From Bacteroidales bacterium (GTDB lineage: Bacteria; Bacteroidota; Bacteroidia; Bacteroidales; P3), in assembly GCA_017962445.1 (NCBI GenBank), contig JAGCVI010000017.1, forward strand, positions 1 to 58,813: 58,813 nt of DNA, read 5' to 3'. Under the pieces are notes generated by a model. The model did no database searches. It was not told the origin of the DNA and was given only the letters and a program-made list of their open reading frames with translations. Below are positions 3,699 through 46,917 of this stretch, in pieces. A program made the position numbers and the translations under genes. Position 1 is the stretch's first letter; every line of letters starts with the position of its first letter.

Positions 3699-3730
3699 TA
3701 ACTCATTTCACCACAAAAAAACATACCACA

Positions 3731-4144: not shown

Positions 4145-4782
4145 TGCAGCCTACGACACGGATTTTCCCAACATCGTATTTTCCATCCATAGCACTCGCC
4201 GCCGCCATGGTGCAGAGCGGCGACGTACCCGTTGAGGTCAACGAAACATTTCCCAAGCAGACCCACCGCAACCGCACAGTGATAATGACCGCCGCAGGTC
4301 CCGAGACGCTGAGTGTGCCAGTGGTGCGACCCGACGGAACGCACACCCGCACGGGGGATATCAGGATAAGCTATGCCGAGAAATGGAACCTTATCCACTG
4401 GCGTGCCATCGTGTCGGCCTACAACGCATCGCCATTTTTTCTATACTACCGCGACGACTTCGAAAAAATTTTGATGCGTCGCTATGACCTGCTGACTGAA
4501 CTCAACGAGGAACTGCTCGCAATGCTATTCAAAAAAATAAAAGCCGACTGCAGTATATCGCATACCGAGACATTCATAAAACCCGGAGCGGAAGGCGTGG
4601 ATGACTACCGCGACAGGTACAATTACAAACATCCCGACAAAAACATAAACTACCCGACATACACCCAGGTGTTCTCCGACCGTATGCCTTTCAACGGCAA
4701 CGTCAGTGTGCTCGACCTGCTATTCAACCTCGGTCCAGAGACAAAAGGGTATCTCCTAAACATCATGTTCCATGGCTGTTAA
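4144..4782 (+). CDS. WbqC family protein
   Basis: 212 residues. Recognised from the early FPTSYFPSIALAAAM segment, the conserved NETFPKQTHRNRTVI block, the YAEKWNLIHWRAIVSAYNAS core and the FFLYYRDDFE segment, which are hallmarks of WbqC-like proteins in Bacteroidetes. Family members are often linked to glycan or O-antigen loci, but no reaction is established that I can state for this one. It lacks a signal peptide. It is the second gene of a two-gene operon and is convergent with mnmG. Confidence 0.85.
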   Translation: MQPTTRIFPTSYFPSIALAAAMVQSGDVPVEVNETFPKQTHRNRTVIMTAAGPETLSVPVVRPDGTHTRTGDIRISYAEKWNLIHWRAIVSAYNASPFFLYYRDDFEKILMRRYDLLTELNEELLAMLFKKIKADCSISHTETFIKPGAEGVDDYRDRYNYKHPDKNINYPTYTQVFSDRMPFNGNVSVLDLLFNLGPETKGYLLNIMFHGC

Positions 4783-4788
4783 GACCAT

Positions 4789-4804
4789 TGTTTCACGGGA
4801 AACA
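4789..4804. promoter_or_regulatory. parS-like site 1
   Basis: TGTTTCACGGGAAACA matches the chromosomal parS consensus TGTTTCACGTGAAACA at 15 of 16 positions. Confidence 0.7.
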
Positions 4805-4835
4805 GTCGAAAACAGCAAAAAACAGCAAGAATCCC

Positions 4836-4868
4836 TATGTAAATATCATGCTCCATGATATTTACATA
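4836..4868. other. Perfect 15-base inverted repeat between parS-like sites
   Basis: TATGTAAATATCATG and its exact reverse complement are separated by three bases (CTC). It lies between the convergent WbqC and mnmG genes, midway between two parS-like sites. It has no T-run, so it could be an unusual bidirectional terminator or a protein-binding palindrome. Confidence 0.75.
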
Positions 4869-4871
4869 TTA

Positions 4872-4887
4872 TGTTTCACGAGGAACA
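4872..4887. promoter_or_regulatory. parS-like site 2
   Basis: TGTTTCACGAGGAACA matches the parS consensus at 14 of 16 positions. It ends eight bases before the mnmG stop codon. Confidence 0.6.
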
Positions 4888-4895
4888 TAGCCCAA

Positions 4896-6776: not shown

Positions 6777-6811
6777 AAGCAACACGCTATTTCTTAATCC
6801 AATATCATATC

Positions 6812-6827
6812 CGTTTCACGTGAAACA
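6812..6827. promoter_or_regulatory. parS-like site 3 (near-perfect)
   Basis: CGTTTCACGTGAAACA contains the perfect palindrome GTTTCACGTGAAAC and matches the 16-base parS consensus at 15 positions. It lies between ybeY and mnmG. Confidence 0.82.
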
Positions 6828-6828
6828 A

Positions 6829-7257
6829 TCATTTTTTCATGGCATCGAGCATAGCCAGCGACTCCTCCTCTTTCGCCCTCATCTGGGCAGCATCCGCGTC
6901 GCTCTTGTCCTTGAATCCGAGCAGATGCAGCACCCCGTGAATGATGACCCTGTGCAGCTCGCGGTCGAACGGCACACCGAGTTGAAGGGCGTTCTCCCCT
7001 ACCCTGTCGATGCTTATCAAAATGTCGCCCGAGACAACATTGCCCGACACATAGTCAAAAGTGATGATGTCCGTATAAGTGTCATGATTCAGGAATTTGA
7101 CATTGACATCGAAGATGAAATCGTCGGAACAGAAACGGTAGGAAATTTTGCCGAGCGTCTTTCCATGTCTTTTTATCACCTCCGAAATCCACTTTTTCAT
7201 CAACGACTCATCGTTGAGTAGAAAATCGACAGTCTCGTTTGAAAAATGAACAGCCAT
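6829..7257 (-). CDS. ybeY: Endoribonuclease YbeY (rRNA maturation factor)
   Basis: 142 residues. A zinc-dependent endoribonuclease acting in 16S rRNA 3-prime maturation and 70S quality control. The signature region reads HGVLHLLGFKDK (His107, His111); the usual third ligand in GYDH is replaced by FKD, a variation I believe is common in Bacteroidetes. The upstream NVKFLNHDTYTDIITFDY block is also typical. ATG at 7257 (MAVHFSNE) was chosen; an earlier in-frame Met at 7314 would add a poorly conserved extension. It lies 52 bases before mnmG on the same strand with a parS-like site in the gap. Confidence 0.93.
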   Translation of the reverse strand: MAVHFSNETVDFLLNDESLMKKWISEVIKRHGKTLGKISYRFCSDDFIFDVNVKFLNHDTYTDIITFDYVSGNVVSGDILISIDRVGENALQLGVPFDRELHRVIIHGVLHLLGFKDKSDADAAQMRAKEEESLAMLDAMKK

Positions 7258-7909: not shown

Positions 7910-8012
7910 AGGCATTACGAATGCTATCCTGTTTACAAAAATAGGAAAATTTTTCTTAATAACAAAATTATTTGTCGTGAAAGGGAAAAAAGAAGATGAA
8001 ATGGGAGTAATA

Positions 8013-8226
8013 AAAAGGAAGTTAATCTTCGATGGAAGTTAAGTGCTGCGCACAAGACAATACTAATCATTTGTCCATTTTTGCCGAAGGCTGCGTACCG
8101 AAGGCTGCGAACACCTTAATTAAAATTTATTGTGGTGAGCAACACCTTAATTAAAAATTATTGTGGTGAGCAACACCATAGAAATAAAAGAAACTACAGC
8201 GAGCAACTTCCACTTTTACTCCCAAT
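8013..8226 (+). repeat. Mosaic intergenic repeat, copy C
   Basis: The fullest copy: GGAAGTTAATCTTCGATGG, AAGTTAAGTGCTGCGCACAA, GACAATACTAATCATTTGTC, two GCCGAAGGCTGCG-type units, two tandem ACACCTTAATTAAAA units each with TTATTGTGGTGAGCA, then TAGAAATAAAAGAAACTACA. It fills the gap of about 345 bases between the RsbW-like gene and the large coiled-coil gene; nothing else was seen there. Confidence 0.8.
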
Positions 8227-8256
8227 ATTCAAAGACCTGAGCAATCCAAGATCTTC

Positions 8257-11200
8257 TCAGAACTTGAAAAAATAGTCGTTGACTTTGTTTTTGTAGTAGT
8301 TGTTGAGGGTAGGGGGGGTGGAGTGGAATAGTTCTATATTATTCTCCTGCAGCTTTTTGTATCGCTCCATATCGGTCTGCGAAGGCTGGAAGATATCCTT
8401 GCCTTCTGTACTTTCGCGACGTTCTTCCTTCTCGCGTTCCATCTCGGCCTTCTCGTGTTGTAGCAGGCGTGTCATAATCTGCTGCTGGCGCTGAATAGTC
8501 TGGCGGGTGATGGTTTTGTTGACGAGATCGGTCTCGGTCTGCTCCATCTGCCGCATCATCTCGTCAATCTCACGTGCCAGCTTGCTGTTGCCGCCGCTCT
8601 CCTCCTTCATTTTCTGACCGTATTCCTGCATCATGCGGCGTATCTGTTCTTGCTGGGCGGCCATCTTGGCAAACTCCGAACTCATGGAGTTGTGCTCGCC
8701 AATCTTGGCACGGCCAGGCTTCTGGCCTTGTTTCTCGAGCTGGTTTTTCAAGTCGTTGAGCTGCTTGTTCAGCTGCTCCTGCATCTGCCGCATCGACTTG
8801 GGCGAGGGCTTGCCGCTGCCCGGCTTGCTGCAGCTGCCCTTCATCTTCATGCCCTGGCGTTTGCAGCTGCCCTGCTGTTTCTGCTGCTGGTTTTGGCGCA
8901 TCTGGTTCTGCATCTGGTCAAGCGATTCAGCCAGGACGAGCGACAAATTGTTGAGGGCAGTCATCGAGTATTGCATTGAGCTTGAAGCCGATGTGTTGTG
9001 ATAGTTGGCGTAGAACGACTGGTTGAACTGCACCAGGTTGTTCAGCGATCTGGCGATGCTGCTGTTGACCTCGCCAAGCTCTTTGTTAATCACTGCTGCC
9101 ACGGCTACCTGCCGCTTGGCCATGGCCCGCAAAGAATCCTCCACATTCCTGAAATCATCCTTCAACTTGTTTTGTTCCAAGATAATCTGCTGGTACTTCG
9201 GGTCTTGGACATTGACCAAGGCTACAGTGTTGATCAGCGACTCCTGGTTGAACGAAAGCTGCACAAGGTTCTTCAGCAACTGGCGCACCTGCTCTGCATC
9301 TTCGGCGAGGTCTTCCTGTTCAACGTTCATCTGGGCCTCGGCCAGCTGTTCCGACAGCTTTTGAAGGTCTTCGGCGGCGGATTTCTGCGACTTCGAAGCG
9401 TTCTTTTTCTTGCCTTTCGACAGCTCTTCCTTAGCCTGTTGCTGCTCGCTGTCTATCTTGTTCTGCAAGCCCTTGTCTATTTTGAAATCCGAAGGTTGCT
9501 CAAGGTTTTTGTAGTCTTTCTGTATCTGTTCTATGTCCTTTTTCAGCTGCTGGTACTGTTCCGACAGCGATTCCTGCTCCTTGAGATTCTGCTTTGCGTC
9601 ATCTTGGCGGTTAGACAGTTCCTCCTGCTTCTTGGCCAGCTCCTCGGCCTTGTTCACGGCCTGCTCAACTTTCTTCTCTATTTCAAGGCGTTTCAGTAGT
9701 TCAATGTTCTGGTCCAGCTGCTTTTCGATGTCCTCGTTCTTCAGTTTCAGGTTCTCGAGCTCTTCCTGCACCTTTTTCTTGTCCATCTCCTGCATCAGAC
9801 GTTCCATCTCCTTCATCATCTCCTTGATTTCATCGTTCATCACCTCGTCGAACAGGCGGTCCAGCTCCTTCTGTTTCTCCATCAGCTGTTCGCTCTGGTC
9901 GCGGTATTTCTCCTCCAGACGGTTGTTTTCCTTCATCTGCTGGCGCATCTGCTGCATCTGGTTGCGTACCTCCTCCTGGCGCTTCTTCAGCTCCCCTATC
10001 TGCTTTTTGTCCTGCCACGACAGCTCTTTCTTGTCGACCAGCTTGCGCATCATTTCGTTGATTTCCTCCTGCAGCTTCTTCAGCTCCGAAATCGACATCT
10101 CGGCCTGCTGGTGGATATCCGACGACGTGCTGTTGATCAGCTTGTCAATCTCCTCTTCGGTAGGCACTTGTATCTCAAATGTCTGCGATTTCGTCGCCTT
10201 GGCACCGTTCACGCCGTCGTTGTCCCACACCATGAAGTAGTATTTCACCTTGTCGCCGGGGTTGAGCGTAACCTGCGACAGGTCGGTGGAGTAGTAGAAC
10301 TCTTGCGACGGCTCGTGCGATACGGCTACTGGCAGGTGCTGCACTTCGTTAACGGAAGTGTCCGACACATTGGTTCTTTCGACTACGAAATCGAGTTTCG
10401 AGATGCCGTAGTCGTCCTTGATGTTGCCCTTGAAGAAGTAGCGGTCGGGCATCAGCGAGTCGCTCATCTGCATCACGGCAATCATGGGATAGGCGTCGTC
10501 AATCACCGATATGCTGTACGATAGCGTGTCGGAGACGATGAAGTTGTTCTCGACAAAGAAAGAGTATGAGAACGAACTCATTGCACGTGTCGACATTTTT
10601 GCGCTCCCCGCCGTGCCAAGCTCAGTGACCGCAAACAGGACATCGCTGACAAAATGCAGCGAGTTCGCATCCTTTGTAGTGAACAGCCAGTCGATATGCG
10701 TGCCCTTGGGCAGCGTGATGTCGCCGATATTGGCCAGCGTCTCGTTCTCCTTGCCGGTGTAGGCAGGGTAGGAGAGGACCGCCTGGAACTGCACCACAGC
10801 TGGCCGCGGCATGACGGAGAGGCAGTATTGCTGCGAGACGACACCCACAGCCTCGAACTGGAAATAATGCGAGCGCTGCAGGTTCTTGAACAGGTAGGTG
10901 AAATGCGTGTTGTCGGCCTTCTGCATGCGGTAGGTCACGCCGTCGACAACGATGGAAACCTCGTTGGGCACCTCGTCGCCATCCACGGCCACGCGCACCA
11001 TGAAGTCCTCCTGCTGCGAGGCCGACAGCTCCTTGTTCTCAAGCACGAAAGCGAAGGGTGCAGGCTTTTCATAGAATGTGGAGTGGTTGATGAGACGCTT
11101 CGAAGGCTCGGTGATGAACGACGGGGCGACGATAAGCACAACGATAATAAACAGCGCAGGGACGGCCACATACTTGACATACTTGACATTCTTGCCGAGG

Positions 11201-11640
11201 TCTATCGCCTTTAGGAACGGGATAGGGGAGAGCTGGCGTGTTTTCTGCTCGATGCCGGCGCGCAAAAGCTCGTTGTCCGAGTCGATGCCCATCTTCTGCA
11301 ACTGCAATAGGTTCAGCAGCTTATCGCTGACCTCAGGGAAATGGTCGCCGATGATGGTGGCGGCAGTCTCATAGGAGATGCGACGGCCCAGACTGAACAT
11401 CCTCAGCAGCGGCGAAACGACATAGACCGCCAGTATTGCCGCGGCGGCAGCGATGAACGACCAGAACATCACTGTGCGCACAACGGTGCCAAAATAGCCG
11501 AAATACTCCAGCACCACGACAAGGATATACAGCACCAACAGCAGGGCCGCCGAGTAAAGCAAACCCTTCAACAACCTGTTTTTATAGTATTTCCTTATAA
11601 AAAGGTCGAGTTTATCTATTATTTTACTTTCAGTTGGCAC
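8257..11640 (-). CDS. DUF4175-type large membrane coiled-coil protein
   Basis: 1127 residues. Two hydrophobic spans lie near residues 25-48 and 53-77 and a third near 170-190, giving an N-terminal membrane anchor. A beta-rich periplasmic part follows (about 195-510), then a long Glu/Gln/Lys/Leu-rich coiled coil (about 520-850), and a Gln/Met/Gly/Ser-rich C-terminal half with further helices. This matches the DUF4175 proteins of Bacteroidetes; their role is not established. The GTG at 11640 is taken as start: a -7 element at 11665-11672 lies just upstream, and the longer reading to 11853 would overlap the divergent SDR gene and has no Met between. No partner genes are adjacent. Confidence 0.82.
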   Translation of the reverse strand: MPTESKIIDKLDLFIRKYYKNRLLKGLLYSAALLLVLYILVVVLEYFGYFGTVVRTVMFWSFIAAAAAILAVYVVSPLLRMFSLGRRISYETAATIIGDHFPEVSDKLLNLLQLQKMGIDSDNELLRAGIEQKTRQLSPIPFLKAIDLGKNVKYVKYVAVPALFIIVVLIVAPSFITEPSKRLINHSTFYEKPAPFAFVLENKELSASQQEDFMVRVAVDGDEVPNEVSIVVDGVTYRMQKADNTHFTYLFKNLQRSHYFQFEAVGVVSQQYCLSVMPRPAVVQFQAVLSYPAYTGKENETLANIGDITLPKGTHIDWLFTTKDANSLHFVSDVLFAVTELGTAGSAKMSTRAMSSFSYSFFVENNFIVSDTLSYSISVIDDAYPMIAVMQMSDSLMPDRYFFKGNIKDDYGISKLDFVVERTNVSDTSVNEVQHLPVAVSHEPSQEFYYSTDLSQVTLNPGDKVKYYFMVWDNDGVNGAKATKSQTFEIQVPTEEEIDKLINSTSSDIHQQAEMSISELKKLQEEINEMMRKLVDKKELSWQDKKQIGELKKRQEEVRNQMQQMRQQMKENNRLEEKYRDQSEQLMEKQKELDRLFDEVMNDEIKEMMKEMERLMQEMDKKKVQEELENLKLKNEDIEKQLDQNIELLKRLEIEKKVEQAVNKAEELAKKQEELSNRQDDAKQNLKEQESLSEQYQQLKKDIEQIQKDYKNLEQPSDFKIDKGLQNKIDSEQQQAKEELSKGKKKNASKSQKSAAEDLQKLSEQLAEAQMNVEQEDLAEDAEQVRQLLKNLVQLSFNQESLINTVALVNVQDPKYQQIILEQNKLKDDFRNVEDSLRAMAKRQVAVAAVINKELGEVNSSIARSLNNLVQFNQSFYANYHNTSASSSMQYSMTALNNLSLVLAESLDQMQNQMRQNQQQKQQGSCKRQGMKMKGSCSKPGSGKPSPKSMRQMQEQLNKQLNDLKNQLEKQGQKPGRAKIGEHNSMSSEFAKMAAQQEQIRRMMQEYGQKMKEESGGNSKLAREIDEMMRQMEQTETDLVNKTITRQTIQRQQQIMTRLLQHEKAEMEREKEERRESTEGKDIFQPSQTDMERYKKLQENNIELFHSTPPTLNNYYKNKVNDYFFKF

Positions 11641-27848: not shown

Positions 27849-29114
27849 ATGAAAGATATTTTTGAACGTATTAAAGAGTCGACCGGCGGTCCGTTGGGAC
27901 AGTATCGCAAATTGGCCGATGGTTATTTTTATTTTCCGAAGCTTGAAGGCGAACTGGGGCCTGAGATGACATTCAACGGCAAGAAGGTCCTGAACTGGAG
28001 CCTTAACAACTATCTGGGTCTCGCCAACAATCCCGAGGTTCGCGCCGCCGACGAGGAGGGTGCACGCCGCTGGGGTCTGGCATACCCGATGGGAGCCCGC
28101 ATGATGAGCGGCCACACCTCGCTGCATGAGGAGGTCGAGTCGATGCTGTGCGAGTATACGCACAAGAAATACGGCTACCTGCTCAACTTCGGTTACCAAG
28201 GACAGATAAGCATTCTCGACACTATCGTCAGCCTGCGCGACGTCATCGTTTACGACAGCGAGGCTCATGCTTGCCTTATCGACGGTTTCCGTGTGACCGG
28301 TGCCAAGCGTTTCAAATATCAGCATAACGACATCGAGAGTCTGCGCAAGCAGCTGACCCAGGCCACGGCACTTGCCGAGAAGCAGGGCGGCGGCATCCTT
28401 GTGGCTACCGAAGGTGTCTATGGCATGGAGGGCGACCTCGGTGCGCTGGACAAAATCGTTGCCTTGAAGAAAGAATTCAATTTCCGCATACTTATCGACG
28501 ATGCTCACGGTATGGGCGTTATGGGTCCTGAAGGCCGCGGCACGCACACCCACTTCAACTGCGCCGACGACATCGACCTCTACTTCTGCGCCTTTGCCAA
28601 GACCATGGCCATCATCGGCGGCTTCATCGGCTGCAACGACGAGGACATCATCACTTATCTGCGCTTTAACATGCGTTCGCAGATCTACGCCAAGAGCCTG
28701 CCGATGCCTATCGTATGGGGCGTGAAACGTCGTCTGGAAATCATCAACCAGCATCCCGAATACCGCGAGAAACTATGGGAACTTTCGACCTATCTCCAGA
28801 AGTCGCTCCAGGCCGAGGGTCTCAACACAGGTGTTACTGAGTCGCCCATCACGCCGGTCTTCTTCCCGGGCGATGTGAACCAAGGCACCAACGTTGTTGT
28901 CGACCTGCGCGAGAACTACGGAATTTTCTGCTCCATCGTGGTTTATCCCGTTGTACCGAAGGGCCAGATCATGCTGCGCATTATACCCACGGCGGTACAC
29001 ACCATGGAACACGCCAACCGCACCATCGAGGTGTTCCGCGAGGTGAAGAAACGTCTCGACGAAGGCGTGTACAACAAGCCCATGCCGGATATGCATATCA
29101 TTAAGAAAAGCTGA
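27849..29114 (+). CDS. Alpha-oxoamine synthase; probable cysteate-fatty acyl transferase (CapB/SulA-like)
   Basis: 421 residues, PLP fold type I. Marks of the alpha-oxoamine synthase family (serine palmitoyltransferase, KBL, BioF): NWSLNNYLGLANNPEV, the HTSLHEEVE block, cofactor-stacking His140 in DSEAHACLIDG, Asp217 and His220 in LIDDAHGMGVMG, and the Schiff-base Lys251 in FAKTMAIIGGF. Family members condense an amino acid with an acyl thioester with loss of CO2. The next genes are a threonine/cysteate-synthase-like enzyme and an SDR, which together match the known three-step route to the sulfonolipid capnine; this gene would then join cysteate to a fatty acyl group. Serine palmitoyltransferase or KBL remain possible. 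The substrate assignment is from context, not from residues. Confidence 0.8.
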   Translation: MKDIFERIKESTGGPLGQYRKLADGYFYFPKLEGELGPEMTFNGKKVLNWSLNNYLGLANNPEVRAADEEGARRWGLAYPMGARMMSGHTSLHEEVESMLCEYTHKKYGYLLNFGYQGQISILDTIVSLRDVIVYDSEAHACLIDGFRVTGAKRFKYQHNDIESLRKQLTQATALAEKQGGGILVATEGVYGMEGDLGALDKIVALKKEFNFRILIDDAHGMGVMGPEGRGTHTHFNCADDIDLYFCAFAKTMAIIGGFIGCNDEDIITYLRFNMRSQIYAKSLPMPIVWGVKRRLEIINQHPEYREKLWELSTYLQKSLQAEGLNTGVTESPITPVFFPGDVNQGTNVVVDLRENYGIFCSIVVYPVVPKGQIMLRIIPTAVHTMEHANRTIEVFREVKKRLDEGVYNKPMPDMHIIKKS

Positions 29115-29123
29115 ATCCATTTT

Positions 29124-29211
29124 TGTTGATATGTTGATATGGAGAACGTTGAAAGGGATATATCTTTATCGTCGTCCCCCATTAACATATCAACATATCA
29201 ACATATCAACA
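29124..29211. repeat. Inverted repeat and 8-base tandem units between capB-like and capA-like genes
   Basis: TGTTGATATGTTGATATG at 29124-29141 is the exact reverse complement of the right arm at 29194-29211, which is part of three tandem CATATCAA units (29186-29209) ending eight bases before the next ATG. The transcript could form an 18-base stem with a loop of about 52 bases that holds back the start of the next gene. Confidence 0.8.
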
Positions 29212-29218
29212 GAAACAA

Positions 29219-30427
29219 ATGAAATACCAACTCAGATGCAAGAAATGTGGCAAAGTCATAACTGACTTTGCCACTTGGTTTAAGCAAAACCAGCAGTGTG
29301 AATGCGGCAGCGGATATGCCGAGGTGGAATACGCCGTTGCTAAGCCGTTCAGTTTTCAGGAGCCTGCGACAAACTCATACCAGGATTATTATTTTGACCT
29401 TCTGCCCATTGAGAAGCGCGAGAATATCGTCAGTTTCGGAGAGGGCCTGATTTCTATGGAGCGCTGGAACAATCTGGAGTCCTACGCCAAAGGGAAAGGC
29501 ATAGACTGCAAGGTGTATGTCTATCGTAATGACCAGAACCAAGGCAGCGGCTCGTTCAAGGATATCAGTGCCGCACTTGCCTCGACGGTGCTTAAAGAGC
29601 ATGGAATCAAGGAGTACTGCCTGGCTTCGACAGGCAATGCAGGAGTGGCTTTTGCCACCTATCTGGCCAAGGCCGGTATCAGGTTCACCGAGTTCGCACC
29701 CAACTGCATCGACCCCGCCACTGTCGAGGCCATTCGCAAGGCCGGTCAGCCGATAGTTATTTCAAAAGGCGGTTACGGCGACGCAAAGAAAGAGGCCGCC
29801 GACTACCACAAAGATAACAATGTCCTTATCAGTGGTGGCAATACCGACCCGCTGCGAATCGAATCCAAGCGCTTGCTAGCCTACGAGTGTCTGCGTCAGA
29901 TAGGGCAGATGCCTACGGTTTATATGCAGGCCGTCGCCGGCGGCACTTCGCCGTTGGCTCTTGAGAAGGGCATTCGCGACCTGGTCGCGGCTGGCGAGAA
30001 GGTGACCTTGCCCAAGATGCTGTTGGTGCAGCAGGACGAGTGCGACCCTATGGTCACCGCCTGGGAGAAGGCCACTGCTGCAGGCTTTCCTGAGGGTTGG
30101 GAACAGCAGTACGAGGCAAAGAAAGATATCAAGACGCGCATAGGTATTCTTACCGCCGCCAATCCAGGCAATTATCCTCTTGTCGCTCCACTGGTTAAAC
30201 GCAGCGGCGGCACATTCATCCGCGTCAAGGAGGCCGAACTGCCGCAGTATGGCAAGGAGATGAAAGCCGCCACGGGCACCCTGCTAGGTCCTGCCTCCAT
30301 GGTTTGCTATGCAGGATTCTTCCAAGCTGTGGATAGAGGCTTGATAAAGAATGGCGACATTGTGCTTTTGAACACTGGCGAAGGCTGCGACCGTGCTCAG
30401 TGGTTCAAGGATCTGGTGGACGAATAA
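29219..30427 (+). CDS. Threonine synthase-family PLP enzyme, probable cysteate synthase (CapA-like)
   Basis: 402 residues, PLP fold type II. An N-terminal zinc ribbon (Cys7, Cys10, Cys27, Cys29) is followed by the PLP-Lys motif GSGSFKD (Lys114), the phosphate-binding STGNAGVAFATYLA and the C-terminal LLNTGEGCDR. This is the threonine-synthase fold, but the archaeal and bacterial cysteate synthases, which make cysteate from phosphoserine and sulfite, belong to the same family. The position between an alpha-oxoamine synthase and an SDR favours cysteate synthase over threonine synthase. Threonine synthase remains the main alternative; an aspartate kinase gene is nearby but on the other strand. 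It starts 104 bases after the first gene and ends 17 before the third. Confidence 0.82.
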   Translation: MKYQLRCKKCGKVITDFATWFKQNQQCECGSGYAEVEYAVAKPFSFQEPATNSYQDYYFDLLPIEKRENIVSFGEGLISMERWNNLESYAKGKGIDCKVYVYRNDQNQGSGSFKDISAALASTVLKEHGIKEYCLASTGNAGVAFATYLAKAGIRFTEFAPNCIDPATVEAIRKAGQPIVISKGGYGDAKKEAADYHKDNNVLISGGNTDPLRIESKRLLAYECLRQIGQMPTVYMQAVAGGTSPLALEKGIRDLVAAGEKVTLPKMLLVQQDECDPMVTAWEKATAAGFPEGWEQQYEAKKDIKTRIGILTAANPGNYPLVAPLVKRSGGTFIRVKEAELPQYGKEMKAATGTLLGPASMVCYAGFFQAVDRGLIKNGDIVLLNTGEGCDRAQWFKDLVDE

Positions 30428-30444
30428 AAATATTGATTCCGCCC

Positions 30445-31248
30445 ATGAAACAAAGATTTCAAAATAAAGTTGTTTGGATTACAGGAGCCTCGTCGGGTAT
30501 CGGCGAGGCTACGGCATACCGTTTTGCCCAAGAGGGTGCCAAGGTCATTGTCACAGCTCTAGAGGTCGACTTGCTGGAGAATGTTGTAAACAAATGCAAG
30601 GAATTGGGAGCTCCCGATGCGGCGTCGTTACCGTTCGACTTGTCGAAAACAGACGAGCTCGACGGTCTGGCAGAAGCAGCGTGGAATACCTTCGGACATA
30701 TAGACATCTTCTATAACAATGCCGGCATCAGCCAGCGCGGCACAACCGTCGAGACCGAGATGCATGTCATTCGCAAAGTGATGGACATAGACTATTTTGC
30801 ACCTGTCGTTATGACCAAGAATATCTTGCCACGCATGATAGAGCAGGGGGGTGGACAGCTCGTCGTCACCACCAGCATTGCCGGACGTTTCGGTTTCCCG
30901 CTCCGTTGCGCCTACAGCTCTGCCAAGCATGCACTCTATGGATTCTTTGAAACGGTGCAGGCTGAGACATACGACCAGAACATCCGCGTCACTATCGTCT
31001 GTCCGGGACGTGTGCAGACCAATATCTCCAAGTATGCCCTCGAGAAAGACGGAAAACAGCATGGCAAGATGGATGCCGGACAGGCAGGAGGCGTGACACC
31101 ACAGCAGGCCGCCGACAAGATTGTGAAGGCCGTGTATAGAAAAAGACGCGAAGTCCTCGTTGGCCGCTATGAACTCCTAATGGCTTACATCAAGCAGTTC
31201 TGTCCTGGTCTGGCCGCACGATTGGCCCGCAAAATCAAGCCTATGTAA
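30445..31248 (+). CDS. SDR oxidoreductase, probable 3-keto-sphingoid/sulfonolipid reductase (CapC-like)
   Basis: 267 residues. Classical SDR with TGASSGIG (13-20), NNAG at 91-94, and catalytic Ser144, Tyr157 and Lys161 (YSSAK). The sequence FGFPLRCAYSSAKHALYGFFE and the VCPGRVQTN segment resemble 3-ketosphinganine reductase and DHRS7-type enzymes that act on long-chain ketones. As third gene of the operon it would reduce the 3-keto product of the alpha-oxoamine synthase. ATG at 30445 is chosen; an in-frame Met at 30400 lies inside the upstream gene. A strong bidirectional terminator follows two bases after the stop. Confidence 0.85.
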   Translation: MKQRFQNKVVWITGASSGIGEATAYRFAQEGAKVIVTALEVDLLENVVNKCKELGAPDAASLPFDLSKTDELDGLAEAAWNTFGHIDIFYNNAGISQRGTTVETEMHVIRKVMDIDYFAPVVMTKNILPRMIEQGGGQLVVTTSIAGRFGFPLRCAYSSAKHALYGFFETVQAETYDQNIRVTIVCPGRVQTNISKYALEKDGKQHGKMDAGQAGGVTPQQAADKIVKAVYRKRREVLVGRYELLMAYIKQFCPGLAARLARKIKPM

Positions 31249-40863: not shown

Positions 40864-41943
40864 ATGAACGATTTTTTTGTTTCCGGAATCCAGCAAGTAG
40901 GAGTGGGGTGTGTCAATTTTGAAGAGGCATGGCGTTGGTATATCGACATGTTCCAGATGAATGTGCGTATCCTTGAAGACGACACCGTCGCAGAGCGTAT
41001 GCTTCCCTATACTGGTGGCAAGGCTCAGAAGCGTCACGCATGCATAGCTGTCAACCTGCAGGGCGGCGGCGGATTCGAGATATGGCAATACAGCGAGCGC
41101 AAGCCCCAGCCGATTGATTTTGAAATCCAGGTTGCCGATCTCGGCATATTTGCAGCCAGAATAAAAAGCCGTGATGTCAATGCTTTCCATGACGAGCTTA
41201 TATCAAAATATCCAAAAGTAGGTCCCGTTTCGTCGATGCCCGACGGACAGCGTTGTTTTGTGGTCGAGGACCCCTGGGGCAACTATTTCCAGGTCGTTGA
41301 AGATGCCTCGATATTCATTGAGCAGAAAACCCTCAGTGGCGGTATTGTAGGTGCCATGACTGGCTGTTCGGACATTGACCGCACCATACCTCTCTATCGC
41401 GATGTGCTTGGCTATGATCGTGTTGTGTACGACGAGACTGGCGTTTTCGACGATTTTGCATTCATGAGGGGAGGCTCGCAGCGTTACCGTCGCGTTCGTC
41501 TGGCATCGAGTTCTCCTCGCAAGGGTGCCTTCGTCCCCCTCTTTGGCGACAGCACCATCGAGTTGGCGCAGGCTCTTGACCGCACCCCTCGCAAGATTTA
41601 CGAAGGCCGCTATTGGGGTGATCCTGGATTCATTCAGATCTGTTTCGATGTCACCAACATGCGTGCGCTCGAGCAGCACTGCAACGCCCTTGGATTCCCA
41701 TTCACGGTCGACAGCTGCAAGGACAACGCCCATTTCGACATGGGCGAGGCCAGCGGCCACTTCACCTATATTGAAGATCCCGACGGCACTTTGATAGAGT
41801 TGGTCGAGGCGCATAAGCTGACCATCCTGAAACGTCCGCACATTTACATAAATATGCTGAAACGCAAGCGCGAAAAGCCGTTCCCGAAGGTCTTTTTCAG
41901 GCTGATGGGAATGAACAAGGTGGATTTCAGCAAGAAGAAATAA
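40864..41943 (+). CDS. Two-domain VOC (glyoxalase/dioxygenase-fold) protein leading the Hdr-like operon
   Basis: 359 residues. Two VOC modules: residues about 6-150 (ending DPWGNYFQVVED) and about 158-318 (ending DPDGTLIELVEAH). Each module keeps the Glu of the last strand, but the first-strand His usually used for metal is Gln (IQQVGVGC) in module 1 and absent in module 2 (VGAMTGCSD), so metal binding is likely altered. A basic C-terminal tail follows. The family includes methylmalonyl-CoA epimerase, glyoxalase and ring-cleaving dioxygenases; none can be assigned here. It lies 17 bases before the first Hdr-like gene and is probably co-transcribed, so its substrate may be linked to that complex. 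Confidence 0.8.
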   Translation: MNDFFVSGIQQVGVGCVNFEEAWRWYIDMFQMNVRILEDDTVAERMLPYTGGKAQKRHACIAVNLQGGGGFEIWQYSERKPQPIDFEIQVADLGIFAARIKSRDVNAFHDELISKYPKVGPVSSMPDGQRCFVVEDPWGNYFQVVEDASIFIEQKTLSGGIVGAMTGCSDIDRTIPLYRDVLGYDRVVYDETGVFDDFAFMRGGSQRYRRVRLASSSPRKGAFVPLFGDSTIELAQALDRTPRKIYEGRYWGDPGFIQICFDVTNMRALEQHCNALGFPFTVDSCKDNAHFDMGEASGHFTYIEDPDGTLIELVEAHKLTILKRPHIYINMLKRKREKPFPKVFFRLMGMNKVDFSKKK

Positions 41944-41960
41944 TTGACAGTATAGAACCT

Positions 41961-42566
41961 ATGAGTAACATTGTTGACTATATAAAGCAGGATGTTCGTG
42001 CCGACGAGGCTCTCAAAGCCTGCATGAACTGCGGCATGTGTACCGCTGTCTGCCCGGCAGCCGAGTTCTACGATTACGACCCGCGTCGCATCTGTGACAT
42101 TGTGCAGCGTGGCAACGAGGTTGAAATCGAACATCTTCTGAAAAGCGAGACGATATGGTATTGCGGCCAGTGCATGTCGTGCAAGACCCGTTGTCCGCGA
42201 GGCAATGTGCCTGGCGAGCTGATCTCGGTTCTGCGCCGCGCATCCCAGGAGCTGGGCTACTTCACTGAAAGCGAGAAAGGGCTTCAGCAGAAACAACTGA
42301 TGAACACCATCGAGAGCAATATCCTCGAGATTGGTTACTGCGTGCATCCCGACAGGGTCGACCCTGACTATCACCCCGAGCAGGGACCTATCTGGGAATG
42401 GTATCGCGAGAATATTGAGGAGATTGCCCCCAAGCTTGGTGCCAACTACCATGGCGAGGGTCCGGGAGCTCTGCGCAACATACCACAGGAGGATTTGGAC
42501 GAGGTGCGTTGCATCTTTGAGGTCACGGGTGGCATGAAATTGCGCGACAAAGTGATGGATGCATAA
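41961..42566 (+). CDS. hdrC: HdrC-like 4Fe-4S protein
   Basis: 201 residues. Two [4Fe-4S] motifs: Cys21-24-27-31 (CMNCGMCTAVCP) and Cys68-71-74-78 (CGQCMSCKTRCP), spaced as in heterodisulfide reductase subunit C, whose role is to pass electrons between HdrA and HdrB. The C-terminal half is longer than in simple ferredoxins (HPDRVDPDYHPEQGPIWEWY onwards) and lacks Cys motifs. No signal or membrane segment, so cytoplasmic. Second gene of the operon. Confidence 0.9.
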   Translation: MSNIVDYIKQDVRADEALKACMNCGMCTAVCPAAEFYDYDPRRICDIVQRGNEVEIEHLLKSETIWYCGQCMSCKTRCPRGNVPGELISVLRRASQELGYFTESEKGLQQKQLMNTIESNILEIGYCVHPDRVDPDYHPEQGPIWEWYRENIEEIAPKLGANYHGEGPGALRNIPQEDLDEVRCIFEVTGGMKLRDKVMDA

Positions 42567-42593
42567 ATGATGGATAATAGATAGTTAATATAT

Positions 42594-42962
42594 ATGAAAG
42601 ATTTTGGATTCACCATATCTAAGGGACGCTCCCTCGATCTTGACAATCTGCAGCAGGACAGGGTTGACAAGCTCCTTGAGTTGGTGCCCTCCTACAAGTT
42701 GTGCATAGGCTGCGGTGGCTGCACAGCCTCCTGTTCGGCCGCTGGCTTCACCGACTTCAACATAAGGCGCATACACACCTCTTTTTTACGTGCAAGGTAT
42801 GATGATCTCGACAAGCAGCTCCAGAAGTGTATGCTCTGTGGCAAGTGCACATTGGTATGTCCTCGTGGTGTCAATACCCGTGCGCTGATTATCAACATGC
42901 GGCGTATCCTTGCCGGTGTCGACAGCGTCACTGTCAACGAGGAGAAAGGAGTGGTTCTATGA
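42594..42962 (+). CDS. Second, short HdrC-like 4Fe-4S protein
   Basis: 122 residues. Two [4Fe-4S] motifs: Cys37-40-43-47 (CIGCGGCTASCS) and Cys79-82-85-89 (CMLCGKCTLVCP). Its spacing and length are those of a minimal HdrC-type electron carrier, distinct in sequence from the 41961 gene, so two HdrC-like carriers are encoded side by side. Its stop overlaps the start of the next gene (ATGA), implying equal synthesis of this carrier and the membrane subunit. Confidence 0.88.
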   Translation: MKDFGFTISKGRSLDLDNLQQDRVDKLLELVPSYKLCIGCGGCTASCSAAGFTDFNIRRIHTSFLRARYDDLDKQLQKCMLCGKCTLVCPRGVNTRALIINMRRILAGVDSVTVNEEKGVVL

Positions 42963-44761
42963 GCAAATTCTCTATTTTTATAATTCCATTCTGTATCGGA
43001 GTGCTTTTCCTGCTGGTCATTTCCGTTTGGAAGTACTGGCGTTGGATTAAAGGTTTCGACAAGCTGCAGCGGGCCATCATACGCAAAAACATCTTCACAT
43101 GGCGCTTCCTGCCGGCCATCTGGGAGGCTTTCCGCGAGGGTCTGCTCCATTGGCGCATAACCAAAAAGAACCTGCTGCTGGGCTACATGCACCGCAGTCT
43201 GGCTTTCGGATGGTTTCTGCTTATCGTGGTCGGTGCCGTCCAGGCATCGTTGGGCTATCCCGACGGCCATCCGCTATGGATTGCTATTTTCTATAATTAT
43301 TTTGAGATAGAGGCCAGCCCTGTCGATTTCCGTCATGCCGTTTTCTTTGCCAACTTGATGGACGGCCTGTTGCTCTATGTGCTCAGCGGCCTTTTCCTGG
43401 CCATGTTCAAGAAGGTGTGGTCGCGTCCGTTGGGCATGAAGCGCACCACACGCCACACCCTCACCGACCGCGTCGCCAAACTCTCGCTATGGTGCATCTT
43501 TCCCTTCCGTCTTCTCTCGGAGGCTGTCACGTCGGCCATCCATGGTAACGGCGGTTTCCTGGTGAAGTGGCTTGGCGGTGTTTTCGAAAGCATAGGCCTT
43601 GCCGATCCTGCCCTTGAATATACATGCTGGATGCTCTACTCCATAGCCCTCGGCACCTTCTTCTGCATCATGCCGTTCTCGCGCTACATGCACATCTTCA
43701 CCGAGGTGTTCCTCATCTATTTCCGTCAGCTTGGAGTGCACGACAGCGACAAGAAAACAGGCTATACCATGTTCGAGCTCAGTGCATGCTCGCGTTGCGG
43801 TATCTGCATCGACGGCTGTCCTCTCAACCGCCAGCTGGCCATAACCAATGTGCAGGGCGTCTATATGTTGCAGTCCATACGCAACCTCGAGTTGCAGCGC
43901 AATGCCGAGCCTATTGCCGAGAACTGCCTTATGTGCGACCGCTGTGTGGCTGACTGCCCCGTCAATCTCGACCTCTCGATAATCCGCCGCCAGGTGCGCA
44001 TCAAAAACAAGGTGGCCATCGACAACAAGGGCGGTTATGAATATTTGCGCAACATCCATCCCTTCAACTCTATCGGCCGTGTGGCATATTTCGGAGGCTG
44101 CATGTCGCATCTCACGCCTGGCATCACCCGTTCCATGGAGGCCATCTTCAACGCCGTTGGCCAGAAATACTGGTTCATGGACAAGGACGAGACCATCTGC
44201 TGCGGTCGTCCGCTGCTGCAGCAAGGCTTTGAACACCAGGCTTTCGAACTGCGCCGCAAGAATACCGAGATGATTGTCAACAGCAAGGCGACAATGCTTA
44301 TAACCTCGTGCCCCATCTGCTATCAGTCGTTTAAGAAAGAATACAAGCTGTCGATACCGGTGATGCACCACACAGAGTATATCAACATGTTGATAAGCAA
44401 TGGACAGCTGAAGCTTCGCAAGGACGACCGCAAGGTGACATACCACGATCCCTGCGAGCTGGGACGCGGATGCGGCATCTACGACGAGCCGCGCAATGTG
44501 CTGAGTGCCACTACCACATTGCTCAAGACCAAGGAAGAGCGCGAAAAGAGTCTCTGCTGCGGTTTCAATCTGGGCAACCCATTGCTCGACATTGAACAGC
44601 AGACCAAGATACGCGATGCTGCACGCGACAACTTGCTGGCTCCCAATCCAGACACCATCGTCACCGCCTGCCCCATGTGCAAGAAGGCCTTCACACGTGC
44701 CGAAGACATACCTGTCAAGGATATTGCCGAGATTGTGGCCGGAAACATTATTAACCCTTAA
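42959..44761 (+). CDS. Membrane heme-b, 4Fe-4S and double CCG-domain fusion (HdrDE/DsrMK-like)
   Basis: 600 residues. About five membrane spans in residues 1-255 hold several His (MHRSLAFG, FRHAVFF, RYMHIFTEVF) suited to bind heme b, as in the HdrE/DsrM/NarI type. Then come two [4Fe-4S] motifs (Cys277-280-283-287; Cys323-326-329-333) and two cysteine-rich CCG domains (GGCMSH...ICCGRPLLQQG...SCPICYQ and HDPCELGRGCGI...LCCGFN...ACPMCKKAF), the module that carries the disulfide-active cluster in HdrB/HdrD. So one chain joins a quinone/heme membrane arm to a heterodisulfide-reductase-type catalytic arm. ATG at 42959 is set by the four-base overlap. This would link the complex to the menaquinone pool. 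Confidence 0.88.
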   Translation: MSKFSIFIIPFCIGVLFLLVISVWKYWRWIKGFDKLQRAIIRKNIFTWRFLPAIWEAFREGLLHWRITKKNLLLGYMHRSLAFGWFLLIVVGAVQASLGYPDGHPLWIAIFYNYFEIEASPVDFRHAVFFANLMDGLLLYVLSGLFLAMFKKVWSRPLGMKRTTRHTLTDRVAKLSLWCIFPFRLLSEAVTSAIHGNGGFLVKWLGGVFESIGLADPALEYTCWMLYSIALGTFFCIMPFSRYMHIFTEVFLIYFRQLGVHDSDKKTGYTMFELSACSRCGICIDGCPLNRQLAITNVQGVYMLQSIRNLELQRNAEPIAENCLMCDRCVADCPVNLDLSIIRRQVRIKNKVAIDNKGGYEYLRNIHPFNSIGRVAYFGGCMSHLTPGITRSMEAIFNAVGQKYWFMDKDETICCGRPLLQQGFEHQAFELRRKNTEMIVNSKATMLITSCPICYQSFKKEYKLSIPVMHHTEYINMLISNGQLKLRKDDRKVTYHDPCELGRGCGIYDEPRNVLSATTTLLKTKEEREKSLCCGFNLGNPLLDIEQQTKIRDAARDNLLAPNPDTIVTACPMCKKAFTRAEDIPVKDIAEIVAGNIINP

Positions 44762-44773
44762 GCAGACCAGAAA

Positions 44774-45835
44774 ATGCAAAAACGATTTTGGAATGAATAT
44801 CAGAAAGAGATAGCCGACGACCATTTCTTCTATGAGCGCAGCTGCATACGCCAGACCTTCTTCCCTGGGTCGGAAGCGGCGTTCCTGCGTATTGTTCGCG
44901 ACGAGCTCGGCAAGGACATCTGCGACAACCCCCATCAGCATACCTGCACGGGCATCGGCTACCACAGCGACGTGGTGCCTTTCGAGACCACGATGACCGT
45001 CGTGGCACGCCTCTTCTCGCTCATGACGGAGTGCGGCTACGAGAACTACGTACCGTCGTGTGTCACCTCGTTCGGAGTGTTTTCCGAGGTCATCGAGAAA
45101 TGGGAGAACGACCCCAAGCTCATGGAACAGGCCCGTCAGTTCCTGTGGGAGGCAACAAAGCGCGAGTTCAAGATACCCAAAAATATTGCTCACCCTTCCG
45201 ATGTGATCTATAAATTCCGTTTCGACCTCAAGCCGAAAATGAAGTACCAGCTGGTGAACCGCTTCACCGGCAAGCCGCTACGCGTGGTGGAACACATAGG
45301 TTGCCACTACGCCAAGATTTTCCCCGAGCGTGGCATCGGCAAGGCCGAGTTCCCATATGTGCTCGCAGGCATGATAGAGGCTTGGGGCGGCACGGTGGTC
45401 GACTACCCTGAGCGCCGTCACTGCTGCGGCTTCGGTTTCCGGCAGTATCTTGTTCAGGAAAACCGCGGCTATTCCATTGCCAATACCAAGAAAAAATTCC
45501 AGTCGATGGAGCCCTACGAGCCCGATTTCATACTCACCAACTGTCCTGGCTGCAACATGTTCCTCGACAAATGGCAGTACACCATTTCCGAAATGGAACA
45601 CAAAACCTACGACAAGGAAGGCTTCGGCATACCGGTGTTGACCTATGAGGAACTGACAGGCCTCCTGCTGGGATATGACCCATGGCAGCTCGGCCTGCAG
45701 CTTCACCAGGTACAGTCGGAGCCGCTGCTCAACAAGATAGGCATTGCCTACAATCCTGACGAGAAATACAAAGGCATATCCGGACGCTTGCTGCAGCGTC
45801 CCGAACGCCCAAGTTGTCTCAGGGTCTTCAATTGA
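44774..45835 (+). CDS. hdrB: HdrB-like CCG-domain protein
   Basis: 353 residues, cytoplasmic. Two cysteine-rich halves: SCIRQTFFPG and PSCVTSFGVF in the first, and IGCHYAKIFPERG, RHCCGFGF and NCPGCNMFLDKW in the second. The second half has the CX(n)CCGX(n)CXXC pattern that binds the noncubane 4Fe-4S cluster of HdrB, where disulfides are reduced. The first half appears less complete (no CCG). It lies 12 bases behind the membrane fusion gene, which also has CCG domains, so the operon encodes two possible disulfide-reducing sites. Confidence 0.88.
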   Translation: MQKRFWNEYQKEIADDHFFYERSCIRQTFFPGSEAAFLRIVRDELGKDICDNPHQHTCTGIGYHSDVVPFETTMTVVARLFSLMTECGYENYVPSCVTSFGVFSEVIEKWENDPKLMEQARQFLWEATKREFKIPKNIAHPSDVIYKFRFDLKPKMKYQLVNRFTGKPLRVVEHIGCHYAKIFPERGIGKAEFPYVLAGMIEAWGGTVVDYPERRHCCGFGFRQYLVQENRGYSIANTKKKFQSMEPYEPDFILTNCPGCNMFLDKWQYTISEMEHKTYDKEGFGIPVLTYEELTGLLLGYDPWQLGLQLHQVQSEPLLNKIGIAYNPDEKYKGISGRLLQRPERPSCLRVFN

Positions 45836-45906
45836 TGCACTCCTGCCGACCCATACCATATTTTAAATATTAATTCTCAATCGAATCAACGAAAAACAAA
45901 GATAAA

Positions 45907-46917
45907 ATGAAGTCCATTTCCATCATAGGCGCAGGCCCTTCAGGCATTGAGGCCGCTTCTGTTCTGGCCAGGCTTGGCTATACCGTGACCCTTTTCGAGA
46001 AATCGTCATCGCCGCTCAAGAATATTGCCGACAAGGCTTTCTTGTTCCCTAATTTCGCCGCTGCCGGCGACATTGTGGAGCTGATGAATAAAAAACTGCT
46101 CAATTCGAACATTGTGCAGCGGCTCGACACTGACATTGTGGGTCTTGTCCGTGAAGGCGACAGCGGCTGGAAACTGACCGATGCCAAGGGCGCAAGCTAT
46201 TACAGCGACCTCGTTCTGCTGGCCACAGGCTACACTCCTTTCGACGCCCATCGCAAGGAGGAACTGGGCTATGGCATCTACGAAGGTGTCGTCACTTCGC
46301 TCGAGATGGAGAAGATGATACGTTACGACAATATTGTCACCTCGCTTGGCGAAAAGCCGCGTCGTGTGGTATTCCTGCAGTGTGTCGGTTCGCGCGACGA
46401 GAAGTCGGGCAACCACTATTGCTCCAAGCTGTGCTGCGTCACCGCCGTCAAGCAGGCCATCGAACTGAAGAAACAGGTGCCTGATGCCGAGGCCTATATC
46501 TTCTATATGGACTTGCGCATGTGGGGTCAACATTTTGAGGAACTATACCGCCAGTCACAGCAGGACTACGGTGTACGCTACATTCGTGGCCGCATCTCTG
46601 AGGCCTCCGGTACCTTTGATGGACGTGTGCAGATCAAGGCCGAGGACACCCTTATGGGTCTGCCTCTCAAAATGACCACCGACCTGCTGGTTCTGATGGT
46701 AGGTATGGAGGCTTCCGAGGGCACCCGTTGTCTCGCCAAGGCAGCCGGCATCTGTGGCGACTATGGCTTCGCCCAGTCTGTCGACCCCCATATCAACGAT
46801 TGCTGCACTTTGCATGACGGCCTCTTTGTCTGTGGCTCATGCAAGCGTCCTATGACCATCAACGATGTCATCAACGACGGACGCGCCGCAGCCGTGGCTA
46901 TCGCCAGTCGACAGTAG
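45907..46917 (+). CDS. hdrA: HdrA-like FAD oxidoreductase, short form
   Basis: 336 residues against about 650 for classical HdrA. FAD-binding IIGAGPSGIEAASVLARLGY opens the protein, LVLLATGYTPFDA closes the first half, and the HdrA-specific cysteine block FLQCVGSRD...YCSKLCCVTAVKQA (Cys159, 172, 176, 177) follows, as does a C-terminal flavin region VGMEASEGT and GLFVCGSCKRP. The N-terminal domain and the C-terminal ferredoxin inserts of methanogen HdrA are missing, so it may not bifurcate electrons by itself. It is the last gene of the operon and ends directly against the convergent mazG. Confidence 0.88.
   Translation: MKSISIIGAGPSGIEAASVLARLGYTVTLFEKSSSPLKNIADKAFLFPNFAAAGDIVELMNKKLLNSNIVQRLDTDIVGLVREGDSGWKLTDAKGASYYSDLVLLATGYTPFDAHRKEELGYGIYEGVVTSLEMEKMIRYDNIVTSLGEKPRRVVFLQCVGSRDEKSGNHYCSKLCCVTAVKQAIELKKQVPDAEAYIFYMDLRMWGQHFEELYRQSQQDYGVRYIRGRISEASGTFDGRVQIKAEDTLMGLPLKMTTDLLVLMVGMEASEGTRCLAKAAGICGDYGFAQSVDPHINDCCTLHDGLFVCGSCKRPMTINDVINDGRAAAVAIASRQ

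What the first reader, a model, noticed from the sequence alone, without database searches (positions are those of the whole stretch)
40864..46917. Six-gene heterodisulfide-reductase-like operon with a membrane heme-b/CCG fusion and a leading VOC protein
Seen: VOC protein, two different HdrC-like 4Fe-4S carriers, a 600-residue fusion of heme-b spans with two 4Fe-4S motifs and two CCG domains, an HdrB-like protein and a short HdrA-like flavoprotein, all on one strand with 17, 27, overlap, 12 and 71 base gaps. Known: HdrABC and HdrDE reduce the CoM-CoB disulfide in methanogens; DsrMK and related complexes link such chemistry to quinones. Inference: this bacterium has a soluble HdrABC-type arm joined to a quinone-linked HdrDE-type arm with two sets of CCG sites. 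The natural electron pair (disulfide, thiol, NADH, ferredoxin) is not known from the sequence, and the VOC protein suggests a specific metabolite.
Basis: partly seen in the sequence, partly recalled or inferred. Interest (0 to 1): 0.82.

Follow-up and report, generated by a model that had tools for sequence, protein, structure and literature searches.

The report
Sulfite-making operon for bacterial sulfonolipids
A gut-type anaerobic bacterium carries a six-gene electron-transfer operon that most likely oxidises reduced sulfur to sulfite and passes the electrons to the membrane quinone, to supply the sulfonate group of sulfur-containing membrane lipids whose genes lie a few kilobases away.

Summary
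The six genes exist exactly as described, and the Fe-S cysteines of C1, C2, A and the fusion are invariant in 77-98 distinct relatives. C1, B and A are closest not to canonical HdrABC but to the sulfur-oxidising sHdr type. The order usual in other Bacteroidales families, C1-B-A-C2-DE, mirrors sHdr C1-B1-A-H-C2-B2, with H missing and B2 replaced by an EtfD/EMO-like membrane haem-b/CCG fusion. In 393 Bacteroidales genomes 117 of 125 with HdrB have CFAT, against 161 of 268 without; in one genome per family 36 of 37 against 53 of 82. The two gene sets adjoin in several families, and in one a bona fide cysteate synthase follows DE. Cysteate synthase consumes sulfite (recalled). Best reading: an anaerobic, menaquinone-linked third form of sHdr, without LbpA, that makes sulfite for cysteate. 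Sulfur donor, direction and electron acceptor are inferred. VOC follows the sulfonolipid genes rather than Hdr alone; its role is unknown.

The parts
40864..41943 (+). VOC: tandem vicinal-oxygen-chelate protein; fold like GLOD4 and plant glyoxalase I; conserved Q11, E72, Q/H258, E312 as possible metal ligands (ligand assignment inferred from motif spacing)
   Evidence: (pLDDT 87.7); distribution
41961..42566 (+). HdrC1 (sHdrC1-like): two [4Fe-4S] motifs
   Evidence: 48% identity (4e-67) to cyanobacterial C1; 8 of 8 cluster Cys invariant, n=77
42594..42962 (+). HdrC2: second two-cluster ferredoxin-like carrier; not clearly an ortholog of cyanobacterial C2 (29%, 1.5e-8)
   Evidence: n=87
42959..44761 (+). 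DE: membrane haem-b domain + two [4Fe-4S] + two complete CCG sites; EtfD/EMO-like quinone arm
   Evidence: n=88; top fold match M. smegmatis EtfD 9ojn, E 1.5e-18 (model pLDDT 72.3, ferredoxin part below 50)
44774..45835 (+). HdrB (sHdrB1-like): complete C-terminal CCG site, three-Cys N-terminal site
   Evidence: 43% (9e-93) to cyanobacterial B1; n=103
45907..46917 (+). Short HdrA (sHdrA-like) FAD protein with the C-x12-C-x3-CC cluster motif
   Evidence: full-length match to PDB 6tjr 9.8e-52; tree; n=98
27849..29114 (+). CFAT: cysteate-C-fatty acyltransferase (first committed lipid step of sulfonolipids)
   Evidence: PDB 28eh 2e-154 and 7u7h 6.6e-174, serine palmitoyltransferase only 1.1e-70
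29219..30427 (+). CYS: PLP enzyme of the cysteate/threonine synthase superfamily; probable cysteate synthase by context
   Evidence: TIGR03844 99.5 bits and threonine synthase NF006050 146 bits, both below cut-off; in genus g1 present in exactly the CFAT-bearing genomes; beside CysH-CysD-CysN in G058
30445..31248 (+). SDR: probable 3-ketocapnine reductase (by context)
   Evidence: adh_short, SDR family NF004825 234.9 bits (both scanned from 30442)

Best explanation
The operon encodes a membrane-anchored, sHdr-like sulfur-oxidising complex whose job is biosynthetic. C1-B-A (the core shared by known sHdr types) oxidises a sulfane or thiol sulfur, presented by an unknown carrier, to sulfite at the CCG sites of B and possibly DE. 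Electrons pass over FAD and the clusters of A, C1 and C2 to the DE fusion, cross its clusters and b haems, and reduce menaquinone, which the cell could reoxidise with fumarate. Sulfite is consumed at once by cysteate synthase (O-phosphoserine + sulfite to cysteate), and CFAT and the SDR turn cysteate into capnine, the base of sulfonolipids. Shown here: gene content, invariant ligands, relation to sHdr, physical linkage and co-occurrence with sulfonolipid genes. Inferred: direction, sulfite as product, menaquinone as acceptor, and assembly into one complex.
For: (1) sHdr relation: C1, B, A match a cyanobacterial C1-B1-A-C2-B2 operon (48/43/38% identity, 4e-67/9e-93/6e-71), far above canonical HdrB and HdrC of other Bacteroidales (5e-16, 7e-16 or weaker); that operon ends in a gene resembling sulfide:quinone reductase (83 bits, cut-off 525). 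A falls with 6tjr and the cyanobacterial A (90/89) apart from canonical HdrA. Types I and II sHdr share A, C1 and B1 (passage, PMC11582611). (2) Sulfonolipid genes in the window. (3) Linkage: 18 of 80 named loci hold CFAT and CYS within the fetched stretch, 14 also the SDR; whole clusters in L213-L217 and L093; 7 of 72 genomes with both places printed have them within 10 kb, 0.55 expected. (4) In G044 a cysteate synthase (TIGR03844 442.6 bits, cut-off 324.9; PDB 9k3c 1.9e-169) follows DE. (5) Co-occurrence: genus g1, Hdr in 8 of 10 CFAT+ and 0 of 27 CFAT- genomes; 393 genomes OR 9.7, p 2.4e-13; one per family OR 19.7, p 6e-5. (6) Sulfite source: of 26 CFAT+ genomes in the 61-genome set, 24 have Hdr or CysH/CysD-type matches, against 3 of 35 without CFAT.
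Against: No carrier, rhodanese or TusA was identified in the clusters looked at, and there is no LbpA-like surplus. 8 of 125 HdrB+ genomes lack CFAT. Sulfate assimilation and Hdr are not clean alternatives: within 278 CFAT+ genomes 68 have both Hdr and at least two PF01507 matches, 46 have neither (OR 0.56, p 0.03); by the looser count 15 have neither. In g1, G020 has CFAT, CYS and VOC but neither Hdr nor CysH/CysD. The window CYS scores below the cysteate-synthase cut-off and nearer to threonine synthase. C2 and the CCG part of DE are not close to cyanobacterial C2 and B2. The A tree has moderate support and 6tjr is on a long branch. Species relatedness was handled only by one-per-family thinning, and the g1 pattern could be one event.
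Confidence: 0.63

Rival explanations
1. Same pathway, opposite direction: the complex uses menaquinol to reduce excess sulfite or a sulfur intermediate and so protects a sulfonolipid producer from its own sulfite.
For: Linkage and co-occurrence alone do not fix the direction. 68 of 278 CFAT+ genomes have both Hdr and at least two PF01507 matches and so might make sulfite already.
Against: 49 of 117 Hdr+ CFAT+ genomes have fewer than two PF01507 matches and 42 have none, so they would lack a sulfite source; the relatives of the core are sulfur-oxidising.
Confidence: 0.13
2. The complex oxidises thiol sulfur to another product (cysteine sulfinate, thiosulfate or a bound sulfonate) that the CYS-type enzyme or a further enzyme uses, so sulfite is not a free intermediate.
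For: The window CYS is not clearly a sulfite-using cysteate synthase; six HdrB+ CFAT+ genomes of the 61 lack the window-type CYS (040, 042, 044, 048, 054, 060).
Against: G044 has a bona fide cysteate synthase right after DE; in G058 the window-type CYS follows CysH-CysD-CysN, the sulfite-forming route.
Confidence: 0.1
3. A general Hdr-type disulfide or flavin electron-transfer complex, unrelated to lipids; linkage is incidental.
For: Hdr domains and EtfD-like fusion; the split of the operon and its absence from the sulfonolipid locus in many genomes.
Against: Co-occurrence in one genome per family and adjacency in five families beyond g1 in different arrangements.
Confidence: 0.14

Closest known systems
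sHdr type I (shdrC1B1AHC2B2 with LbpA), e.g. Hyphomicrobium denitrificans
   Same: C1, B1, A core; same gene order in the commonest Bacteroidales arrangement; A aligns full length with 6tjr (named in the PDB as a flavoprotein domain protein; that it is H. denitrificans sHdrA is recalled)
   Different: no H gene, no B2, no LbpA surplus; membrane haem-b/CCG fusion instead; found beside lipid synthesis rather than sulfur respiration genes
sHdr type II (shdrC1B1AHB3 + etfAB)
   Same: shares A, C1, B1 (PMC11582611, passage); a quinone-linked exit is plausible in both (inference)
   Different: C2 and DE are separate genes, no B3 fusion, no etfAB seen in the clusters examined
EtfD / EMO (membrane ETF:quinone oxidoreductases)
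   Same: haem-b domain, two [4Fe-4S], CCG-type C-terminal half (top fold match EtfD)
   Different: encoded with Hdr subunits, not with an ETF
Methanogen HdrABC / HdrDE, DsrMK, QmoABC
   Same: domain vocabulary
   Different: all curated cut-offs missed by far: HdrA2 210 of 1100, HdrB 143.8 of 450, HdrC 90.6 of 350, DsrK 57 of 400, QmoC 54.9 of 300 bits
Sulfonolipid (capnine) pathway of Capnocytophaga, Chryseobacterium and Alistipes (CapA/Cys, CapB/CFAT/SulA, CapC/KCR)
   Same: CFAT clear; CYS-family and SDR genes in the same run
   Different: no redox complex is mentioned in the passages seen (PMC9304779, PMC11211663, PMC10191378)

Membership tests
sHdr (sulfur-oxidising Hdr-like), any type | core C1, B1, A | tested here: met
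sHdr type I | syntenic C1-B1-A-H-C2-B2 | tested here: not met
   C1-B-A-C2 present in that order in other families, no H and no B2; definition from PMC11582611
sHdr type II | B3 fusion with etfAB in one cluster | tested here: not met
   DE is not B3; no ETF gene in the window clusters; ETF genes elsewhere in the genome not searched
sHdr | lipoate-binding protein LbpA (GcvH-like) | tested here: not met
   PF01597: 13 of 16 HdrB+ genomes have one match (G006's weak), G040 and G054 none, G058 four; HdrB- genomes alike
sHdr | sulfite formation from sulfane sulfur | not testable with these tools
   needs enzymology
HdrABC (methanogen type) | curated subunit scores; long HdrA with ferredoxin domain | tested here: not met
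   336 aa against 643-671 aa chains
EtfD / EMO | haem-b domain + 2 [4Fe-4S] + two CCG | tested here: met
EtfD / EMO | ETF as electron donor | not tested
   no ETF gene seen beside it; genome not searched for ETF
Sulfonolipid pathway | cysteate-C-fatty acyltransferase | tested here: met
Sulfonolipid pathway | cysteate synthase | tested here: inconclusive
   window CYS below cut-off; bona fide in G044

The most novel reading that the evidence does not exclude
A third, strictly anaerobic form of sHdr (C1-B1-A + C2 + membrane haem-b/CCG fusion, no H, no LbpA) works anabolically: it burns reduced sulfur to sulfite with menaquinone so that fermentative Bacteroidales, many without detectable sulfate assimilation, can make cysteate and sulfonolipids.
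Probability: 0.57. Interest if true: 0.8.

Novelty: new variant of a known kind. Interest (0 to 1): 0.72.

Why it matters
Sulfonolipids (sulfobacins, capnines) are bioactive lipids of gut and rumen Bacteroidota, and the papers whose passages I saw do not say where their sulfite comes from in anaerobes. If right, this gives sHdr a biosynthetic role, a quinone-linked exit that would make sulfite formation feasible without oxygen, a form without LbpA, and a genetic handle on sulfonolipid supply in the gut.

Tried and rejected
Rejected: methanogen-type HdrABC, Qmo and Dsr assignments (cut-offs missed). Rejected: VOC as an Hdr-specific enzyme: it occurs in 19 of 26 CFAT+ genomes, among them 6 of 11 that are CFAT+ without HdrB, and in 2 of 35 CFAT- genomes. 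Tried without profit: PDB match of VOC by sequence (none); recurrent new neighbours of the Hdr cluster in 28 loci (only a NarL-type two-component pair in 4 loci and one sensor-like family in 3); sHdr operons on plasmids (2 matching records of 72,556); type II sHdr terms in PMC10332631 (none found). Considered and left open: methionine gamma-lyase-like gene after DE in G060 and a CysP-like permease (220 of 400 bits) before C1 in G040 as sulfur suppliers. The phylum sample (0 of 197 other genomes with HdrB, 73 of 197 with CFAT) fits a Bacteroidales-only device, but sulfate assimilation was not searched there.

Rows dropped: one search left out sequences covering under 80% of the window protein, exact duplicates and loci L166-L192; one search left out L166-L192. 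Some G-handle loci are the same contigs as named loci (equal contig lengths, e.g. G117 and L103), so locus counts from the two sources are not added together. G048's HdrB is cut at a contig end and counts as HdrB-. The sets and the places were transcribed by hand; set sizes agree with the tallies (125, 278, 276).
Full report
Observation. In distinct relatives the cluster ligands are invariant: C1 8 of 8 (n=77), C2 8 of 8 (n=87), A C159/C172/C176/C177 (n=98), the fusion DE 18 cysteines and His 64, 78, 245 (n=88). HdrB (n=103) has one full CCG site and a three-Cys N-terminal site (C24 0.98, C58, C96) also seen in a cyanobacterial B1. The genome is a 2.04 Mb Bacteroidales MAG-type assembly in 38 contigs, 80% complete; its nearest named relatives are mostly rumen and gut MAGs.

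Gene order. Of 80 named loci returned (of 434 that encode a relative), 39 keep VOC-C1-C2-DE-B-A, 1 lacks A, 3 lack VOC, 4 show DE-B-A, 4 show C1-B-A-C2-DE (2 of them with VOC after), 28 show B-A alone and 1 B alone. For 28 of these last 29 genomes (L108 was not asked) the fusion was sought: 26 have it elsewhere. In 20 such stretches fetched, 9 read VOC-C1-C2-DE and 11 C2-DE. In other families the usual order is C1-B-A-C2-DE (L027-L032; L213, L214, L216-L221, L223, L224, L226, L231, L232).

Relation to sHdr. A matches 6tjr over its whole length (9.8e-52), whereas methanogen HdrA chains match over residues 103-333. A plasmid of Picosynechococcus sp. PCC 7003 has C1-B1-A-C2-B2 followed by a gene resembling sulfide:quinone reductase (83 bits, cut-off 525). 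Window C1, B and A match its C1, B1 and A at 48, 43 and 38% (4e-67, 9e-93, 6e-71). Canonical Hdr proteins of two other Bacteroidales genomes and of Ilyobacter match far worse for B (5e-16 to 3e-10) and C1 (6e-16 to 1e-12), less so for A (4e-44 to 3e-37). C2 is only weakly similar to the cyanobacterial C1 or C2, and the CCG part of DE gave no match to B2 at 1e-3. In a 28-row tree A groups with the cyanobacterial A and 6tjr (90/89) apart from five canonical HdrA (94/91); neither fork is starred, 6tjr is a long branch, and one long-branched HdrA-like row of G060 lies outside both. sHdr types I and II share A, C1 and B1; type I adds H, C2, B2, type II a B3 fusion with etfAB (PMC11582611, passages; gene order also in PMC6067878, passages). 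DE's best fold match is M. smegmatis EtfD (9ojn, E 1.5e-18) from a model with mean pLDDT 72.3 and a poor ferredoxin region. So the system has the sHdr core but misses defining parts of both known types; it works like sHdr and is best called a new variant.

Sulfonolipid link. At 27849-31248, on the same strand and 9.6 kb before VOC, the window has CFAT (PDB 28eh 2e-154; serine palmitoyltransferase 1.1e-70), a PLP enzyme CYS and an SDR. CYS scores 99.5 bits to cysteate synthase (cut-off 324.9) and 146 to a threonine synthase model (cut-off 303), so its name rests on context: within 37 genomes of genus g1 it occurs in exactly the 10 that have CFAT, and in G058 it follows CysH-CysD-CysN. In G044, whose CYS is of the other type, the gene after DE is a cysteate synthase above the curated cut-off (442.6 bits; PDB 9k3c 1.9e-169). 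Full or near-full clusters: CFAT-CYS-C1-B-A-C2-DE-SDR-VOC (L214; also L093), CFAT-CYS-SDR-VOC-C1-C2-DE-B-A (L215), CFAT-CYS-C1-B-A-C2-DE (L213), C1-B-A-C2-DE-CFAT-CYS (L216), C1-B-A-C2-DE-CFAT (L217). In 80 named loci 18 hold CFAT and CYS and 14 all three. Of 72 genomes with both places printed, 7 have HdrB and CFAT within 10 kb against 0.55 expected; 5 after collapsing one genus.

Co-occurrence. Genus g1: Hdr+CFAT+ 8, Hdr+CFAT- 0, CFAT only 2 (G020, G033), neither 27. Order sample of 393: [[117, 8],[161, 107]], OR 9.7, p 2.4e-13. One genome per family (119): [[36, 1],[53, 29]], OR 19.7, p 6e-5. Outside the order 0 of 197 have HdrB and 73 of 197 have CFAT.

Sulfite supply. In the 61-genome set, strong PF01507 matches (CysH/CysD type) occur in 14 of 26 CFAT+ genomes, Hdr in 15, both in 5, neither in 2 (G020, G039); of 35 CFAT- genomes 3 have either. 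In the 393 sample 263 of 278 CFAT+ genomes have Hdr or a PF01507 match at 1e-36; demanding two matches, 232 of 278 against 24 of 115 CFAT- genomes (OR 19, p 4e-32). The two sources are not exclusive: among CFAT+ genomes 68 have both, 49 Hdr only, 115 sulfate only, 46 neither (OR 0.56, p 0.03). PF01507 counts do not separate CysH from CysD. Read plainly: genomes that make sulfonolipids usually have at least one plausible sulfite source, and for 49 of 117 Hdr+CFAT+ genomes Hdr is the only one seen.

Mechanism (inferred). Cysteate synthase joins O-phosphoserine and sulfite (recalled; one review says only that CapA makes cysteate by sulfonation of phosphoserine, PMC10191378, passage). Sulfite is the only strongly oxidised precursor in the pathway. 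From memory the sulfite/sulfide couple is near -0.12 V, menaquinone near -0.07 V and fumarate near +0.03 V, so oxidation to sulfite with menaquinone is feasible when sulfite is drawn off, whereas NAD+ is not a good acceptor. A membrane arm of EtfD type fits this. The carrier of the sulfur is unknown: GcvH/LbpA-type genes are no more numerous in HdrB+ genomes (13 of 16 have one, 2 none, G058 four). VOC is a glyoxalase-I-like protein with conserved Q11, E72, Q/H258, E312 but occurs in 6 of 11 CFAT+ genomes without HdrB, so it belongs to the lipid pathway at large.

Literature. In the open-access library no paper holds sulfonolipid with heterodisulfide reductase or sulfonolipid with cysteate synthase and sulfite; a broader search gave one review. 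One study of Black Sea isolates, seen in passages, reports a heterodisulfide reductase system read as sulfide detoxification in a list of strains that includes Labilibaculum and Ancylomarina, and capnine lipids in these two, without linking them (PMC11129491). Subscription papers, among them the original capnine pathway paper, were not seen.

Verdict. Link to cysteate/sulfonolipid synthesis: likely (about 0.85). Sulfite formation by sulfur oxidation to menaquinone: best explanation (0.63).

Noticed in passing
window 29130-29218: The gap between CFAT and CYS carries repeated ATATCAAC/GTTGATAT motifs in both orientations (seen).
   Followed up: no
window 43487-45193 (-): A 568-aa antisense ORF overlaps DE and HdrB; probably a shadow of codon usage.
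   Followed up: no
L233 (Picosynechococcus sp. PCC 7003 plasmid): A C1-B1-A-C2-B2 operon plus a gene resembling sulfide:quinone reductase lies on a cyanobacterial plasmid.
   Followed up: partly
L029 (G060) 1811-6979: Long HdrA-type proteins (one scores 499.7 bits to HdrA2, below its cut-off) and an HdrC-like protein lie just upstream of the C1-B-A-C2-DE set.
   Followed up: partly
L219 (G337) 7920-11226: A trans-4-hydroxyproline dehydratase and activase-like pair follows DE in a HdrB+ genome without CFAT.
   Followed up: no
L030, L032, L216, L231: A NarL-type response regulator and histidine kinase pair lies beside the Hdr cluster or its CFAT-CYS neighbours in four loci of three families.
   Followed up: no
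G026:C61:3-404: A partial VOC ortholog at a contig end in a g1 genome without HdrB or CFAT; may be a missing neighbourhood or contamination.
   Followed up: no
window 2999-3177 (-): Two adjacent tRNA-Lys(TTT) genes.
   Followed up: no
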